Assembly: GCA_021798235.1 (NCBI GenBank)
Contig: JAJZMO010000195.1
Span: 5,674 to 25,038 of the forward strand
Source: Acidobacteriota bacterium
GTDB taxonomy: Bacteria; Acidobacteriota; Terriglobia; Terriglobales; Acidobacteriaceae
Reading direction: 5' to 3'
Length of the DNA: 19,365 bases
The notes below the pieces were generated by a model. The model was not told where the DNA came from and made no database searches. It saw only the letters and a program-made list of their open reading frames with translations. The first letter of the stretch is position 1. The number at the start of each line of letters is the position of its first letter. The translations under genes were made by a program, and so were the position numbers. Shown here in pieces: positions 8,866 through 14,018 of this stretch.

Positions 8866-9849
8866 ATGACAGACAAGAACGGCAACAACGGCAGTGCAAG
8901 CAGCAACTCTGGACTTCGCTTGAAAATCGGCTTGGCGGAAATGCTGAAGGGCGGCGTGATTATGGACGTCATCAACGCCGAGCAGGCTGAGATTGCCGAA
9001 AAAGCCGGAGCTGTGGCCGTGATGGCGCTGGAGCGCGTGCCTGCGCAGATTCGCGCCGAGGGCGGCGTAGCCCGAATGGCATCGCCCAAGATTATTAAAG
9101 AGATCATCGCAGCCGTCTCGATTCCTGTGATGGCCAAGTGCCGCATCGGCCACTTTGCCGAAGCGCAGGTATTGCAGGAGCTGGGCGTGGACTTCATTGA
9201 TGAGTCTGAGGTGCTGACCCCGGCGGATGAATTGCATCACGTGGACAAGCACGCCTTCAAAACGCCTTTTGTCTGCGGCGCGCGCGATCTGGGCGAAGCC
9301 CTGCGGCGCATTGCCGAAGGTGCAGCCATGATCCGCACCAAGGGCGAAGCGGGAACAGGCGATGTAGTGCATGCGGTGAAGCACATGCGCCAGATCGTAA
9401 AAGACATGCGCGGGCTGACGGTACTGGGTGAGGAAGAACTTTACGCTGCGGCCAAGGAGTTCCGCGCGCCCTATGAGCTGGTGCGCATGGTGGCCAAGAC
9501 GGGCAAGCTGCCCGTGCCGAATTTTTCAGCCGGCGGCATCGCCACTCCAGCGGACGCAGCCCTGATGCGCCAACTGGGCGCGGAGGCAGTCTTTGTCGGC
9601 TCTGGAATTTTTATGAAGGATGGCGTCACGCGCTTGGTCGTTGAGCACGACGAGAAAACCGGGCTGCTCAAGAATCCCAAGGAGCGTGAGCAGGCGGAGG
9701 CGCGCGCGCGTGCCATTGTGCGTGCCACCACCTTCTTCAACGATGCCAAGGTGCTGGCGGAAACCAGCGAAGAATGCCTGGGCGCGATGAAGGGCTTGGC
9801 CGTCGCAGCTATGCAGCCGGAAGATCTGATGCAGACACGCGGCTGGTAA
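8866..9849 (+). CDS. pdxS: Pyridoxal 5'-phosphate synthase, synthase subunit PdxS
   Basis: PdxS builds PLP directly from ribose 5-phosphate, glyceraldehyde 3-phosphate and ammonia supplied by PdxT (the DXP-independent route), as a cytosolic dodecamer. The 327-residue protein shows D34 in GGVIMDV, the substrate-binding Lys91 in VMAKCRIGH, the second lysine K159 in RTKGEAGTG, and [31 protein letters not shown] low-complexity N-terminus ([12 protein letters not shown]) makes it about ten residues longer than the Bacillus protein. Residue 92 is Cys where Ala is common. The ATG at 8866 has GAGGAA at 8855-8860. It leads the pdxS-pdxT pair. Confidence 0.98.
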
Positions 9850-9883: not shown

Positions 9884-10486
9884 ATGCAACGACTCCCCAT
9901 CATTGGCGTACTCGCCCTGCAAGGCGATTACGAAGCACACGCGCAGGCTCTGTCTGAGGCTGAGGCCGTTCCACGTCTGGTACGCACGGCTGCCGAGCTG
10001 AGCAGCGTGCAAGGTTTGGTGATTCCGGGCGGTGAGTCCACAACATTTCTGAAATTTTTAGAGCGGGAAGGATTGCTCGAACCCTTGCGCGCCTATGTGC
10101 GCAAGCAGCCCACCTTTGGCACCTGTGCTGGCTGTATTTTGCTGGCCAAGCATGTGGTGCAACCCAAGCAAGCCAGTCTGGGTGTGCTCGACGCCACTGT
10201 TGAACGCAACGCCTACGGTCGTCAGGTGGACAGCAGCATTGAGATGGGCGAGAGTTCCCTGCCCGGCGGCCCGCTGGAAATGGTCTATATCCGCGCGCCG
10301 CGCATTCAAAAAACCGGCGTGGGTGTCAAAGTGATGGCACTGCGCGACGGCTTCCCTGTTCTGGTACGGCAAAAACAAATCCTGGCTGCAACCTTTCATC
10401 CAGAACTCTCCGCCGACCGCCGTGTGCATCATTACTTTGTGCAGATGGTAGAAGAGATGACTACGCAGCGTCATTCTGAGAAGTGA
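9884..10486 (+). CDS. pdxT: Pyridoxal 5'-phosphate synthase, glutaminase subunit PdxT
   Basis: PdxT releases ammonia from glutamine and channels it to PdxS. It is a class I glutamine amidotransferase with the triad C81 (GTCAG), H172 and E174 (FHPEL). IGVLALQGDYEAH at the N-terminus and IPGGESTT (47-54) are specific to PdxT. The 200-residue length is normal. The gene starts 34 bases after pdxS; no strong ribosome binding site is visible, so translation may depend on coupling. The last residues (QRHSEK) are encoded by the start of a dispersed-repeat-like sequence, so the extreme C-terminus may not be ancestral. Confidence 0.97.
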   Translation: MQRLPIIGVLALQGDYEAHAQALSEAEAVPRLVRTAAELSSVQGLVIPGGESTTFLKFLEREGLLEPLRAYVRKQPTFGTCAGCILLAKHVVQPKQASLGVLDATVERNAYGRQVDSSIEMGESSLPGGPLEMVYIRAPRIQKTGVGVKVMALRDGFPVLVRQKQILAATFHPELSADRRVHHYFVQMVEEMTTQRHSEK

Positions 10487-10547: not shown

Positions 10548-11306
10548 ATGCCTGTGCCTGCACTTCTAATGCGCTTGCCGTGGCTGTTGCCGCCTGGAGC
10601 CTCGCTCCACGCACCTGCGATCGACGCGCTACTCTACTCTAGCCTCGCCCTGTTGCTGGGGTTTATGTTGCTCGGCCAAGTGCTGCTCGTTGCGGGATTT
10701 TTTTTGCCCGCTCAGTCTCAGGCACGCCTGCAACCCATGTACCGCTGGGCCTTGCTGTTAGCGTTGGTGGCTCTCTTTGTGTGGATGACGACCCGCGCCG
10801 AGCATTTGTGGATGGAAACACAGATGACGCCAGATGGCCCGGACGCGCTGCACGTTGAGGTAGTCGGCGCGCAGTTTCAGTGGTACTTCCGCTACGCCGG
10901 GCCGGATGGCGTTTTTGGACGCACGCGCTTGAAGTTGGCCGATGCTGCGGCTGGCAATCCGCTGGGGATCGATCCGGAAGACCCGCACGGCAAGGATGAC
11001 ATCCTAAGCGCGGTGTTGGTGTTGCCCGTGGGCCGTGCCGCAGATTTGCAACTCCACTCGCTCGACGTCATCCATGGATTTTTTGCGCCCAATCTGCGCA
11101 TCAAAATGAATGCCGTGCCCGGACGCACCACCGAGTTGCACGTTACGCCAACTGCTCTTGGCGACTACCCCATCGTCTGCTCGCAGGTCTGCGGCCTGGG
11201 CCACTTCCGCATGCACGCCGTGCTGCGCGTGGTGTCGCAGCAGGAGTTTGCGCACTGGATGGAACAACAGCAAGCCGCGCAGCGCGCAGCAACGGAGCAA
11301 CCCTGA
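10548..11306 (+). CDS. ctaC: Cytochrome c oxidase subunit II (CuA subunit)
   Basis: This membrane-anchored subunit accepts electrons from cytochrome c at a binuclear CuA centre and passes them to subunit I. The 252-residue protein has two transmembrane helices (about 27-52 and 66-82) and an outer cupredoxin domain. QFQWYFRY (109-116) is the aromatic electron-entry motif. CuA ligands are H176 (DVIHGF), C211, C215, H219 and M222 in CSQVCGLGHFRM. Position 213 is Gln where most A-type oxidases have Glu; Thermus ba3 oxidase also has Gln there. No heme-c domain follows CuA, so it is not caa3-type by fusion. No lipobox is visible. The start at 10548 has a modest AGG nine bases before it. The stop overlaps the ctaD start by one base. 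Confidence 0.95.
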   Translation: MPVPALLMRLPWLLPPGASLHAPAIDALLYSSLALLLGFMLLGQVLLVAGFFLPAQSQARLQPMYRWALLLALVALFVWMTTRAEHLWMETQMTPDGPDALHVEVVGAQFQWYFRYAGPDGVFGRTRLKLADAAAGNPLGIDPEDPHGKDDILSAVLVLPVGRAADLQLHSLDVIHGFFAPNLRIKMNAVPGRTTELHVTPTALGDYPIVCSQVCGLGHFRMHAVLRVVSQQEFAHWMEQQQAAQRAATEQP

Positions 11307-12961
11307 TGCGCAACTCTCTACAAAAAAAATCCTGGCTGCGCCGCTGCCTCTTCACCACTGCGCATCGCGTGGTGGGGGTGCAATATCTGCTGCTGGCCCT
11401 GGCTGCGGTGGTCTGCGGCACGCTGCTTTCGCTGCTGATGCGCATTCACCTCGTCTGGCCCAATGCCGCCTTGCCCGGCCACGGAGTGCTGCGGCCCGAG
11501 GAATATCTGGCGCTGGTCACGATCCACGGTACGTTGATGATCTATTTTGTTTTGACCGCAGCGCCGCAGAACGGATTGGCCAGTTTGATTTTGCCCGCGC
11601 AAATTGGCGCGCGACGCATGGCGTTGCCGCGGCTGAATGCGCTGTCGTTGTGGGTGATCCTGCTCGGTTTTCTTGTGCTACTCTCCGCATTTTGTGTCGT
11701 CGGCGGCGCGCCCATCTCCGGTTGGACAGCGTATCCACCACTGAGCGCTCTGGCCATTGCAGGGCCGGGGCAAGCCATGGGCATGGATCTTTGGCTGCTC
11801 AGTATCGCCCTCTTCTGCGTTGGTTCGCTACTCAGCGCCATGAGTGTGGTCGCCACGGTGTGTACGCAGCGTGCGCCCGAGATGCGCTGGATGCGCTTGC
11901 CCCTGACGGTGTGGTCCTGGTTCACAAGCGCATGTATGATGCTGCCCGCATTCAGCGTGTTACTGGTGGCCGATGGCATGCTCTTCAGCGACCGGCATTG
12001 CGGCACAGCATTTTTTCTGCCTGCTGGCAGCCTCGTCAATGGACAGATCTTGCGTCACGCGGTAAACGGCGATCCGCTGTTGTGGCTGCATCTTTTCTGG
12101 TTCTTTGGTCATCCCGAGGTCTACATTGCGATCCTGCCTGCGATGGGTCTAACTTCTTGCCTGCTGGAAACGTTCTCGCGCCGTCCGCCGGTCAGCTATC
12201 GCACCATGGTGGGATGCACGCTGGCGATTGCCACGCTGGGCTTTGCCGTTTGGGGCCATCACATGTTTGTCAGCGGCATGAATCCCTACGACAGTCAGGC
12301 ATTCAATCTGACCACGATCGCCATAGCCGTGCCTTCGGCGATAGAGGTGATTTTGTGGCTGGCAACCGTGATGGGCGGCGGCTTGGAGCGCACCACGCCG
12401 CTGCTGTTTACGCTGGGCTTTCTTTCTCTCTTCCTCAGCGGCGGCGCAACCGGACCCGTGCTGGCCCAGCCGATTCTTGACAGCTACCTGCACAATACCT
12501 ACTTTGTCGTGGCGCATTTTCATCTGATCCTCGGCATGGCTGGAGTCTTCGCGCTCTTTGCCGCGATCTATTATTGGTTCCCGCTGCTAACGGGCCGCAG
12601 GATGAATGAGCGCTTGGGCCGCTGGCATTTTTGGCTCACACTGGCTGGAGCCTATGCCGTCTTCTTCCCCATGCACTTTGCCGGGCTGGCCGGCGAGCCA
12701 CGCCACTACGCCCAGTTGACGGGCAGCGCAACCTATTTGGCCCGACTGGTGCCGCTGCAAGTGGGCATCACGCATGCGGCATTTCTTCTGAGCGCGGCGC
12801 AATTACTCTTCTTGTGGAATCTGCTGCACAGTCTGCGCCAAGGTGCCGTGTGTGGCCAAAATCCCTGGAAGGCTTCCACAGGGGAATGGAGCGAATCCGG
12901 AAGGATTTGCGCAGCGAGTTTCCCAGCAAAAATCCATGCCACTGCCAGCGAACAGGAGTAA
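11306..12961 (+). CDS. ctaD: Heme-copper oxidase subunit I with substituted proton-channel residues
   Basis: This is the catalytic subunit that reduces O2 to water. The 551-residue protein has about 12 membrane helices and all metal ligands: H74 (TIHGTLM) and H406 for the low-spin heme, H404 for the high-spin heme, and H269, H318 and H319 for CuB. Y273 of GHPEVY is the His-Tyr crosslink residue and E271 the A1-type glutamate. Two proton-path residues differ. The D-channel Asp of GARDxAFPRxN-type motifs is Arg104 (GARRMALPRLN). The K-channel Lys of IPTGVKxxxWL is Glu347 (VPSAIEVILWL). The Mg-site Asp after the helix-X His is N397 (LHNTYF). A Ser/Cys/Trp-containing tail follows residue 510. It starts within the ctaC stop (TGATG). 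Heme type and donor cannot be read. Confidence 0.96.
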   Translation: MRNSLQKKSWLRRCLFTTAHRVVGVQYLLLALAAVVCGTLLSLLMRIHLVWPNAALPGHGVLRPEEYLALVTIHGTLMIYFVLTAAPQNGLASLILPAQIGARRMALPRLNALSLWVILLGFLVLLSAFCVVGGAPISGWTAYPPLSALAIAGPGQAMGMDLWLLSIALFCVGSLLSAMSVVATVCTQRAPEMRWMRLPLTVWSWFTSACMMLPAFSVLLVADGMLFSDRHCGTAFFLPAGSLVNGQILRHAVNGDPLLWLHLFWFFGHPEVYIAILPAMGLTSCLLETFSRRPPVSYRTMVGCTLAIATLGFAVWGHHMFVSGMNPYDSQAFNLTTIAIAVPSAIEVILWLATVMGGGLERTTPLLFTLGFLSLFLSGGATGPVLAQPILDSYLHNTYFVVAHFHLILGMAGVFALFAAIYYWFPLLTGRRMNERLGRWHFWLTLAGAYAVFFPMHFAGLAGEPRHYAQLTGSATYLARLVPLQVGITHAAFLLSAAQLLFLWNLLHSLRQGAVCGQNPWKASTGEWSESGRICAASFPAKIHATASEQE

Positions 12962-12987: not shown

Positions 12988-13746
12988 ATGCCAGCCACCA
13001 TCACGCGCACCCCGGTTAATGTGGAGCGCAAAGACCCCGGCACAGGCGGCAAACCACCCGTGCACCACCGGCCTACGGGCGGCGGCGGGGATGGCGACAA
13101 TTGGGACAATCGTCCACCCGGACGACGCGGCCCACGCGAGATGTTGGCGCGCTACCGCATGCTGCTCTTCTTTGCACTGGCCGGGGACATGATGTTTTTC
13201 GCTGTTATCGTTCTGGCTTTTTACTTCCAACAACGCGCCGTGCGCATGGATCCAGCCAGCACGCTACTGCTCGACTGGAAGCCGCTGGTGCTGCCGCCCG
13301 TATTGTGGATCAACACTGCACTGTTGCTGCTCAGCAGCCTCACCATGGAATTTGCGCGTCGCCATCTCTTCCGCGAAATTGATGTAATGGAAGAGTGGCT
13401 CGGCCTGGGAAAGCCCACATCCAAACGCGCTGCGCCGTGGCTGATCGCCACAGGGATTCTGGGCGCGCTGTTCCTCGGCGGCCAGTGGATTGCATGGAAA
13501 CAACTGAGCGCCGAAGGCGTCTACTTTGCCTCCAACCCCAGCAGCCACTTTTTTTATTTGATTACGGCCACACATGGGTTGCATCTGCTGCTGGGGGTGC
13601 TGGCGATTGCAGGCACGGGATTGGCACTACTCTGGGCCAAGCGCGTGGAACTGCGCCAGATTGCCGTGGATTGCGCGGCTTGGTACTGGCATGCGATGGG
13701 CCTCTGCTGGCTGGCACTGTTTGCGCTGCTGATTTACGGAAAATAG
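12988..13746 (+). CDS. ctaE: Cytochrome c oxidase subunit III
   Basis: Subunit III stabilises subunit I during turnover and in canonical enzymes supports proton uptake into the D channel. The 252-residue protein has a Gly/Pro-rich cytoplasmic N-terminus (about 1-50) and five membrane helices (about 56-80, 103-121, 150-170, 186-217, 228-250), the short five-helix form. Family motifs are ATHGLHLLLG (194-203) and AWYWHAMGLCWL (231-242), with conserved E121 in LTMEFARRH. The ATG at 12988 is chosen because GGAGGG (12973-12978) is well placed; the frame is open upstream only as a shadow of ctaD. It ends the cox block: no subunit IV, heme synthesis (ctaA, ctaB) or cytochrome c gene follows. Confidence 0.93.
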   Translation: MPATITRTPVNVERKDPGTGGKPPVHHRPTGGGGDGDNWDNRPPGRRGPREMLARYRMLLFFALAGDMMFFAVIVLAFYFQQRAVRMDPASTLLLDWKPLVLPPVLWINTALLLLSSLTMEFARRHLFREIDVMEEWLGLGKPTSKRAAPWLIATGILGALFLGGQWIAWKQLSAEGVYFASNPSSHFFYLITATHGLHLLLGVLAIAGTGLALLWAKRVELRQIAVDCAAWYWHAMGLCWLALFALLIYGK

Positions 13747-13775: not shown

Positions 13776-14018
13776 CTACTGTAGACGATGTTGCGGTGAA
13801 TTCGATGCGCACCCACCGCCAACAAATTGCACAATCTCCAATTTGTCCCCGTCACGAAGTGCTGTGCTGCCCCAAGCCGCGCGTGCCACGATAACGCCGT
13901 TGTGTTCGACGGCGATACGGTCGGCTTTCAATTCAAGTGCGATAAGCGCCTGGGCCAGCGTCGCGTCTGTGTCCAACTGGGAGAGTTCGCGCGCCGTGCC
14001 ATTGATGTGCAACTGCAT
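13776..14018 (-). CDS. thiS: ThiS-like sulfur carrier protein with a C-terminal extension
   Basis: ThiS carries sulfur as a C-terminal thiocarboxylate for thiazole formation in thiamine synthesis. The 80-residue protein has the beta-grasp pattern: [12 protein letters not shown], a helix over about 20-30, [13 protein letters not shown], and [18 protein letters not shown]. The Gly-Gly that must be C-terminal for adenylation is at 67-69, but eleven residues (C70 to Q80) follow before the TAG. Either the tail is removed by a protease, or the protein no longer acts as a normal ThiS. No thiG, thiF, thiO or TPP riboswitch is nearby. It lies downstream of an unknown minus-strand gene and convergent with ctaE. 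GGAG just before the ATG lies in a hairpin. MoaD-like or other carrier roles are alternatives. Confidence 0.82.

What the first reader, a model, noticed from the sequence alone, without database searches (positions are those of the whole stretch)
11306..12961. Oxidase subunit I has both classic proton-channel entry residues replaced (Asp to Arg104, Lys to Glu347)
All heme and CuB ligands, the crosslink Tyr273 and the A1-type Glu271 are intact, so the enzyme should be catalytic. The D-channel Asp, expected as GARD in a GARDxAFPRxN motif (bovine D91, E. coli bo3 D135), is Arg104 in GARRMALPRLN. The K-channel Lys, expected in IPTGVK (bovine K319, bo3 K362), is Glu347 in VPSAIEV. Reversing charge at both sites is unusual for a protein with an HPEVY motif. 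The enzyme may pump by an altered route, pump less, or not pump. A Glu at the Lys position could be a protonatable substitute.
Basis: partly seen in the sequence, partly recalled or inferred. Interest (0 to 1): 0.75.

Follow-up and report, generated by a model that had tools for sequence, protein, structure and literature searches.

The report
Oxidase missing both proton-channel entry residues
A soil bacterium carries a respiratory oxygen-reducing enzyme whose catalytic centre looks intact but whose two usual proton-channel residues have been replaced; its lineage lost one channel's entry while a related lineage lost the other's key residue, which offers a natural test of how such enzymes take up and pump protons.

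Summary
CoxA (11306-12961) keeps its heme and CuB ligands, Tyr273 and Glu271, but has Arg104 at the D-channel Asp (R. sphaeroides D132) and Glu347 at the K-channel Lys (K362). Independent relatives share both residues, so they are not errors. In 240 listed relatives of this Acidobacteriaceae lineage (two searches, best 120 each) position 104 is Asp in 0, and 347 is K 172, E 60, S 7, T 1. On a 125-row tree the Asp was lost at or near the base of the lineage; parsimony then gives six separate Lys-to-Glu changes. A related acidobacterial lineage is the mirror image: in 120 listed proteins 104 is D 114 or E 6 and 347 is always hydrophobic. dN/dS of 0.09-0.22 in nine hand-picked pairs suggests that the enzymes are in use. 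In 24 of 25 hand-picked genomes there is a further heme-copper oxidase. Most likely this is a working accessory cytochrome c oxidase, derived from type A1, fed by a K-type path with Glu347 as relay and pumping little or not at all; none of this was measured. Channel variants of archaeal family A oxidases are on record; my searches found no report of this reciprocal loss.

The parts
8866..9849 (+). pdxS, pyridoxal 5'-phosphate synthase lyase subunit; upstream neighbour
   Evidence: NCBIfam NF003215 over cut-off; found near coxA in a number of longer loci
9884..10486 (+). pdxT, glutaminase subunit; directly upstream of coxB
   Evidence: NCBIfam TIGR03800 over cut-off; same-strand neighbour in 41 of 50 lineage loci
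10548..11306 (+). coxB, subunit II with CuA domain, no fused cytochrome c
   Evidence: PF00116 over cut-off; CuA His/Cys/Cys/His/Met present, the Glu of the CuA motif (E254, number recalled) is Gln; no CXXCH
11306..12961 (+). coxA, subunit I of a heme-copper oxidase derived from type A1 (the finding)
   Evidence: PF00115 over cut-off; TIGR02891 538 bits, below its cut-off of 671; translation
11582..11584 (+). Ser93 at R. sphaeroides N121 (D-channel)
   Evidence: S in 74 and N in 46 of 120 relatives, but N in 120 of 120
11615..11617 (+). Arg104 (CGC) at the D-channel Asp (R. sphaeroides D132)
11843..11845 (+). Ser180 at R. sphaeroides N207 (D-channel)
11996..11998 (+). His231 at R. sphaeroides N258, typical of the lineage
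   Evidence: H in 74 of 74 tree rows and 239 of 240 relatives
12116..12124 (+). Glu271-Val272-Tyr273: A1-type Glu (E286) and cross-link Tyr (Y288), intact
   Evidence: E 239 and Y 240 of 240 relatives
12344..12346 (+). Glu347 (GAG) at the K-channel Lys (R. sphaeroides K362)
12704..12706 (+). His467 at R. sphaeroides R482 (near the heme propionates, location recalled)
   Evidence: H 186 and Q 54 of 240 relatives
12988..13746 (+). coxC, subunit III (start at ATG 12988 inferred; the mechanical ORF begins at TTG 12631 inside coxA)
   Evidence: PF00510 over cut-off; ORF list

Best explanation
The locus encodes a working cytochrome c oxidase (coxBAC, CuA plus heme/CuB centre) of an Acidobacteriaceae lineage derived from type A1 enzymes. 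Supported by sequence and tree: the D-channel Asp was lost at or near the base of the lineage, further D-channel positions vary in the window's part of it, the Lys of the K-channel was later replaced by Glu in the window's branch (one of six such events by parsimony), and the catalytic centre has stayed under selection. Inferred: protons for water formation enter through the K-type path, with Glu347 (Ser or Thr in a few others) doing the relay that Lys does elsewhere, as in single-channel B-type oxidases; Glu271 at the inner end of the old D-channel keeps a local role. Inferred with less certainty: little or no proton pumping, so that the enzyme serves as an accessory, low-coupling oxidase beside canonical ones.
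For: Position 104 is Asp in 0 of 240 listed relatives; 347 is K172/E60/S7/T1, never hydrophobic. Mirror image in 120 listed relatives of L139: 104 D114/E6, N121, N139, S142 and N207 kept in 120 of 120, 347 I91/V22/M4/L3. Tree and states; K to E six times, K to S/T three times, no reversal needed; holding all 35 Glu rows together is rejected, p-AU 6e-49 (quick tree, group named after the tree was seen). Position 304 goes with 347 inside the lineage: Thr in 35 of 36 Lys rows, Ala/Ser/Met/Cys in 33 of 35 Glu rows. Ligands invariant in 240 of 240, E286 in 239. dN/dS 0.09-0.22 in nine pairs. CuA ligands intact. Other heme-copper oxidases in 24 of 25 genomes. Papers, passages seen: in A-type enzymes all pumped protons use the D-channel (PMC8079940; PMC6934443); B-type enzymes use one K-like pathway (PMC6934443); T. 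thermophilus ba3 has Arg at the D132 position and Thr at K362, its D-pathway inactive (PMC12901375 Table 2).
Against: N139 and W172 (240 of 240), Y33 (238 of 240) and E286 (239 of 240) are kept, which a wholly dead D-channel would not need. In the Granulicella-like half N121 is kept in 120 of 120 and N207 in 116 of 120, so erosion beyond the Asp is partial. 79 of 120 close relatives have an acid somewhere in the mouth segment, so entry may be relocated in some; the window has none there. L133 has Asp at 104. The 304/347 link is weak: independent pairs 4:0 with 2 ties, p 0.125, and D+K+ sisters have mostly Ala at 304 together with Lys (A13 T1 S1 of 15). Lys to Glu is a one-base change, so mutation bias helps the repetition. 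No activity, pumping or expression data for this locus; the model shows no water paths.
Confidence: 0.58

Rival explanations
1. The D-channel still works, with its entry moved: water and other polar groups (E98 or acids in the mouth inserts in some members, N111 and Glu271 inside) carry protons, so the enzyme still pumps, perhaps more slowly.
For: N139, W172, Y33 and E286 equivalents kept in 238-240 of 240 relatives; N121 and N207 kept in 120 and 116 of 120 of the Granulicella-like set; acid in the mouth segment in 79 of 120 relatives.
Against: The window has no acid in that segment; position 98 is Ala or Ser in 120 of 120 of the Granulicella-like set. In the relatives, N121 (S 74), N207 (52 of 120 not Asn) and S142 (25 of 120 not Ser) vary, while all are kept in 120 of 120 of the D-retaining lineage. 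Inserts of up to 27 residues sit at the mouth.
Confidence: 0.2
2. Proton uptake has switched to the periplasmic side, making a non-electrogenic oxidase, comparable in this respect with cytochrome c-dependent NO reductase (comparison recalled).
For: Changes typical of the lineage at positions that I place on the outer side from recalled structures: H231 (239 of 240), N397 at D412 (240 of 240), His or Gln467 at R482 (240 of 240).
Against: R482 is also Ser or Gln in 6 of 29 other oxidases of the same genomes, so that change is not specific. Lys, Glu, Ser or Thr kept at 347 argues for an inner K path. The outer-side placement was not tested here.
Confidence: 0.1
3. A decaying or inactive accessory oxidase whose channels are no longer maintained.
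For: Some sequences look damaged: L160 has Val and P0015 Phe at E286; outside the lineage L091 lacks a CuB His and G253 holds a broken COX1 match.
Against: Ligands invariant in 240 of 240; dN/dS 0.09-0.22; coxB in 49 and coxC in 50 of 50 lineage loci.
Confidence: 0.06
4. Misalignment or sequence error; other residues occupy the channel positions.
For: None found.
Against: M105, P108, N111 and W351 around the two sites are invariant in 120 of 120 relatives; both residues recur in independent assemblies; the model matches A-type subunit I structures.
Confidence: 0.01

Closest known systems
Type A1 cytochrome c oxidase (R. sphaeroides / P. denitrificans aa3)
   Same: Fold (TM 0.82 to 2gsm_A), metal ligands, cross-link Tyr, HPEVY Glu, CuA subunit II, subunit III
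   Different: D132 is Arg and K362 is Glu; N121 and N207 are Ser; R482 is His; D412 is Asn
Engineered R. sphaeroides mutants D132A and K362M (PDB 3omi, 3omn, 3om3)
   Same: Same two positions altered; listed among the structural matches
   Different: Laboratory mutants of a pumping enzyme, strongly impaired by recall; here both sites are natural, with Arg and Glu
Type B oxidase (T. thermophilus ba3)
   Same: Arg (R100) at the D132 position and Thr (T312), not Lys, at K362; D-pathway inactive (PMC12901375 Table 2)
   Different: ba3 has Ile at E286 and Met at N139 (same table); the window keeps Glu and Asn and matches A-type chains far better
D-retaining, K-less lineage of Acidobacteriota (L139 and relatives)
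   Same: Mirror image; same fold family, coxB and coxC beside coxA in 9 of 9 loci
   Different: D-channel intact, hydrophobic residue at K362
Archaeal family A oxidases with K- or D-channel variants
   Same: Natural channel variants within family A; K-channel loss inferred seven times under one hypothesis (PMC8239418, section 11)
   Different: Different lineages; the variant details are in supplements that I could not open

Membership tests
Type A1 heme-copper oxygen reductase | Glu in HPEVY at the inner end of the D-channel | tested here: met
   Glu271; 239 of 240 relatives
Type A1 heme-copper oxygen reductase | D-channel with entry Asp (D132) and Asn residues (N121, N139, N207) | tested here: not met
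   R104, S93, N111, S180: only N139 kept
Type A1 heme-copper oxygen reductase | K-channel Lys (K362) | tested here: not met
   Glu347
Type A1 heme-copper oxygen reductase | Phylogenetic place within family A beside A1 enzymes | tested here: met
   Groups with acidobacterial D+K+ rows that have HPEVY; lineage node support 97-100 SH-aLRT on a quick tree
Type A1 heme-copper oxygen reductase | Pumps about one proton per electron | not testable with these tools
   needs proteoliposome measurement
Type B oxidase (ba3-like) | Sequence groups with B-type chains and lacks the A1 Glu | tested here: not met
   Glu271 present; ba3 chains score at most 57 bits against 370 for A-type
Nitric oxide reductase of the superfamily | No cross-link Tyr at the CuB His | tested here: not met
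   Tyr273 present, Y in 240 of 240 relatives; that NORs lack it is recalled
caa3-type oxidase | Cytochrome c domain fused to subunit II | tested here: not met
   0 CXXCH in coxB of the window and of the lineage loci examined
Cytochrome c oxidase (CuA type) | CuA ligands in subunit II | tested here: met
   H, C, C, H, M present; motif Glu is Gln

The most novel reading that the evidence does not exclude
A family A oxidase lineage has abandoned both textbook proton inputs and works without pumping, its substrate protons coming through a rebuilt path (a Glu-based K-type path from inside, or a path from the outer side), while a related lineage abandoned only the K-channel: nature has separated the two channels and then altered the second as well.
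Probability: 0.3. Interest if true: 0.88.

Novelty: new variant of a known kind. Interest (0 to 1): 0.72.

Why it matters
How the D- and K-channels share substrate and pumped protons has been worked out largely with laboratory mutants (recalled). Here are natural groups of related oxidases with only a D-channel, with a D-less enzyme that keeps the K-channel Lys, or with neither canonical residue. Members occur in named species (relatives are named Granulicella cerasi and G. paludicola and Alloacidobacterium dinghuense), so the question of which channel is needed for pumping can be put to natural enzymes. It also warns against assuming that an A-type coxA in a genome means an efficient proton pump.

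Tried and rejected
Rejected: error or misalignment (see rivals). Rejected: a single paired charge swap, because the two sites changed at different points of the tree. Rejected: NO reductase, because the cross-link Tyr is kept. Left open: a relocated mouth acid such as E98, absent in the window. Tried without result: the K-channel entry Glu of subunit II (R. sphaeroides E101, recalled); the segment aligns poorly and not every D+K+ sister has an acid there, so I draw nothing from it. R482 to His looked like a mark of the lineage, but 6 of 29 other oxidases of the same genomes have Ser or Gln there. Position 304 looked like a K-channel partner, but D+K+ sisters do not share its Thr. The structural model supports fold and placement of the two sites only.

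Of PMC8407424, PMC5900883, PMC11636273, PMC12901375, PMC8079940, PMC6934443 and PMC6431628 I saw passages; of PMC8239418 passages and section 11; no paper was read whole, supplements could not be opened, other listed papers were seen as listings only. The library holds open-licence papers only. In PMC8407424 'D-channel' occurs 0 times in the main text.

Selections: the tree has 125 rows: P0001 and 23 of the 120 relatives; the locus ORFs of L001-L009 and L081-L163 except six duplicates or near-duplicates (L081-L085, L137); and 15 of the remaining loci (L010-L080). All were hand-picked. Group counts leave out six of the 125 rows (L050, L061, L091, L094, L150, L157). The 25 genomes were hand-picked from the 300, and that search kept loci for only 30 of its matches. 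The nine dN/dS pairs were hand-picked and several synonymous distances are near saturation. Fisher's test on loss events (p 0.014) counts events that I delimited after seeing the tree and is only suggestive; I do not rest on it.

Full report
Observation. CoxA at 11306-12961 (551 aa) is a heme-copper oxidase subunit I (PF00115). Mapping onto R. sphaeroides subunit I (alignment printed, script) puts Arg104 at D132 and Glu347 at K362, with the His ligands, Tyr273 and Glu271 intact. In the same protein N121 is Ser93 and N207 is Ser180; N139 is kept as Asn111.

Where it is. The window holds trp genes, pdxS, pdxT, coxB, coxA, coxC and nuo genes (trp names from my reading of the ORFs). No whole genome is held for it. 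Relatives with a source name are Acidobacteriaceae or named acidobacterial genera. pdxT lies beside coxBAC on the same strand in 41 of 50 lineage loci, in both early-branching loci with Gln or Glu at 104 (L150, L157), and in 2 of 15 D+K+ sisters (L132, L163); some misses have little upstream DNA, others (L134, L149, L159) have enough. The two sisters suggest, but do not prove, that the D+K+ and D-less genes go back to one locus.

The lineage. In the 120 listed relatives position 104 is R87 Q14 G4 E4 S4 A2 H2 K2 C1, never D, and 347 is E59 K53 S7 T1. In 120 listed relatives of a Granulicella-like member 104 is again never D (R71 H22 Q16 G4 S3 E2 K1 C1) and 347 is K119 E1. Each search scored about 8000 candidates and listed the best 120, so the counts describe the listed ones only. 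On the tree (125 rows, quick method) 74 rows including the window form one group with support 97 (100 without L145); one of the 74, L133, has D at 104. L150 (Q) and L157 (E) branch separately, so the Asp was lost once or twice around the base. Other D-channel positions vary too: in the 74 rows N121 is N49 S25, S142 is S43 A18 G13, N207 is N57 with 17 others, while N139, W172 and Y33 are invariant and E286 is E in 73. This erosion is uneven: in the Granulicella-like set N121 is kept in 120 and N207 in 116 of 120. In 36 of 120 relatives the mouth segment is lengthened from 12 to 15-39 residues.

The mirror image. A related acidobacterial group keeps the D-channel and has lost the Lys. In 120 listed relatives of L139 104 is D114 E6, N121, N139, S142 and N207 are kept in 120 of 120, and 347 is I91 V22 M4 L3. 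So where the Asp is gone the Lys position stays Lys, Glu, Ser or Thr (240 of 240), and where the Asp or Glu stays in this group it is hydrophobic (120 of 120). I take this as the best evidence that the K-type path is still used in the window's lineage and that Glu347 is a functional replacement. Against a strict rule: tree row L140 of that group has Thr at 347 with Glu at 104, and L094, elsewhere on the tree, has Gln at 347 with Asp kept.

Repeated Lys to Glu. Parsimony inside the 74-row group needs nine losses of Lys: six to Glu, three to Ser or Thr, none reversed. Holding all 35 Glu rows together is rejected (p-AU 6e-49; group named afterwards). Position 304 follows 347 inside the lineage (Thr in 35 of 36 Lys rows; Ala, Ser, Met or Cys in 33 of 35 Glu rows), but independent pairs are too few to test (4 to 0 with 2 ties) and D+K+ sisters have mostly Ala there. 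Lys to Glu is a one-base change, so part of the repetition may be mutational.

Is it in use? dN/dS is 0.09-0.22 in nine hand-picked pairs, the window against L095 giving 0.11. Ligands and the cross-link Tyr are invariant in 240 of 240. Subunit II keeps the CuA ligands, with Gln for the motif Glu, and has no cytochrome c motif. In 24 of 25 hand-picked genomes there is at least one further heme-copper oxidase match; G227, an assembly of 3.6 million bases, shows only this one. Of the 30 loci kept from that search 29 are other oxidases, and all 29 have Asp and Lys; the thirtieth is a lineage member. A cytochrome bd match is found in 12 of 25 genomes, two of them partial. The enzyme is therefore an accessory one in most of these hosts. 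Expression of this locus was not seen in any source.

Mechanism. From passages read: in A-type enzymes all pumped protons and part of the substrate protons use the D-channel (PMC8079940; PMC6934443), B-type enzymes use one pathway that overlaps the K pathway (PMC6934443), and T. thermophilus ba3 has Arg at the D132 position and Thr at K362 with an inactive D-pathway (PMC12901375; that paper itself argues for a third, H-pathway for pumped protons, which would loosen the link between D-channel loss and pumping). The window has moved towards the ba3 state at D132 while keeping Glu271 and Asn111. I therefore expect a single K-type input with Glu347 as relay and reduced or absent pumping. The input path is inferred from the substitution pattern; the pumping loss is inferred from the literature. 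Changes at H231, N397 and H467 may mark a changed outer side, but R482 also varies in 6 of 29 other oxidases of the same genomes, so the periplasmic reading gets a low weight.

What is known. Acidobacterial strains are described with several A1 and A2 oxidases, some as extra single copies beside the bc1- or ACIII-linked ones (PMC8407424, passages), and type A genes are counted across genomes in PMC5900883 (passages). The passages of PMC8407424 treat the A-type enzymes as energetically favourable; the passages seen do not discuss their channel residues. K- and D-channel variants within archaeal family A oxidases are on record (PMC8239418, section 11). The lineage here, and the reciprocal losses, did not turn up in ten searches of an open-licence library, which is not the whole literature. 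I file it as a new variant of a known kind: derived from A1, but failing two fingerprint features of A1.

Noticed in passing
L136-L143, L008, L009 (coxA): A D-retaining acidobacterial oxidase lineage, mostly with a hydrophobic residue at the K-channel Lys; itself a natural K-less family.
   Followed up: yes
L160 and P0015 (coxA): Two lineage members have also lost the A1 Glu (Val, Phe at E286), so all three classic channel residues are changed.
   Followed up: no
L091 (G002:C63:25514-26650): A long-branch paralogue with LAEVY in place of HPEVY and Gln for one CuB His; probably not an oxidase any more.
   Followed up: no
L094 (G003:C11:23475-24944): A long-branch oxidase with Trp at E286 and Gln at K362, Asp kept.
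   Followed up: no
P0008, P0012, P0014, P0018 and others: Inserts at the D-channel mouth; in 36 of 120 relatives the segment is longer than the usual 12 residues.
   Followed up: partly
G253:C1:2183154-2184255: A COX1 match in three pieces with stops in two of them, apparently a broken oxidase gene.
   Followed up: no
L167, L168, L171, L172, L175, L177: Other oxidases of the same genomes with Ser or Gln at R. sphaeroides R482, which is Arg in all 45 non-lineage rows of the tree groups.
   Followed up: no
window 13776-14018 (-): A small ThiS-like gene on the opposite strand just after coxC.
   Followed up: no
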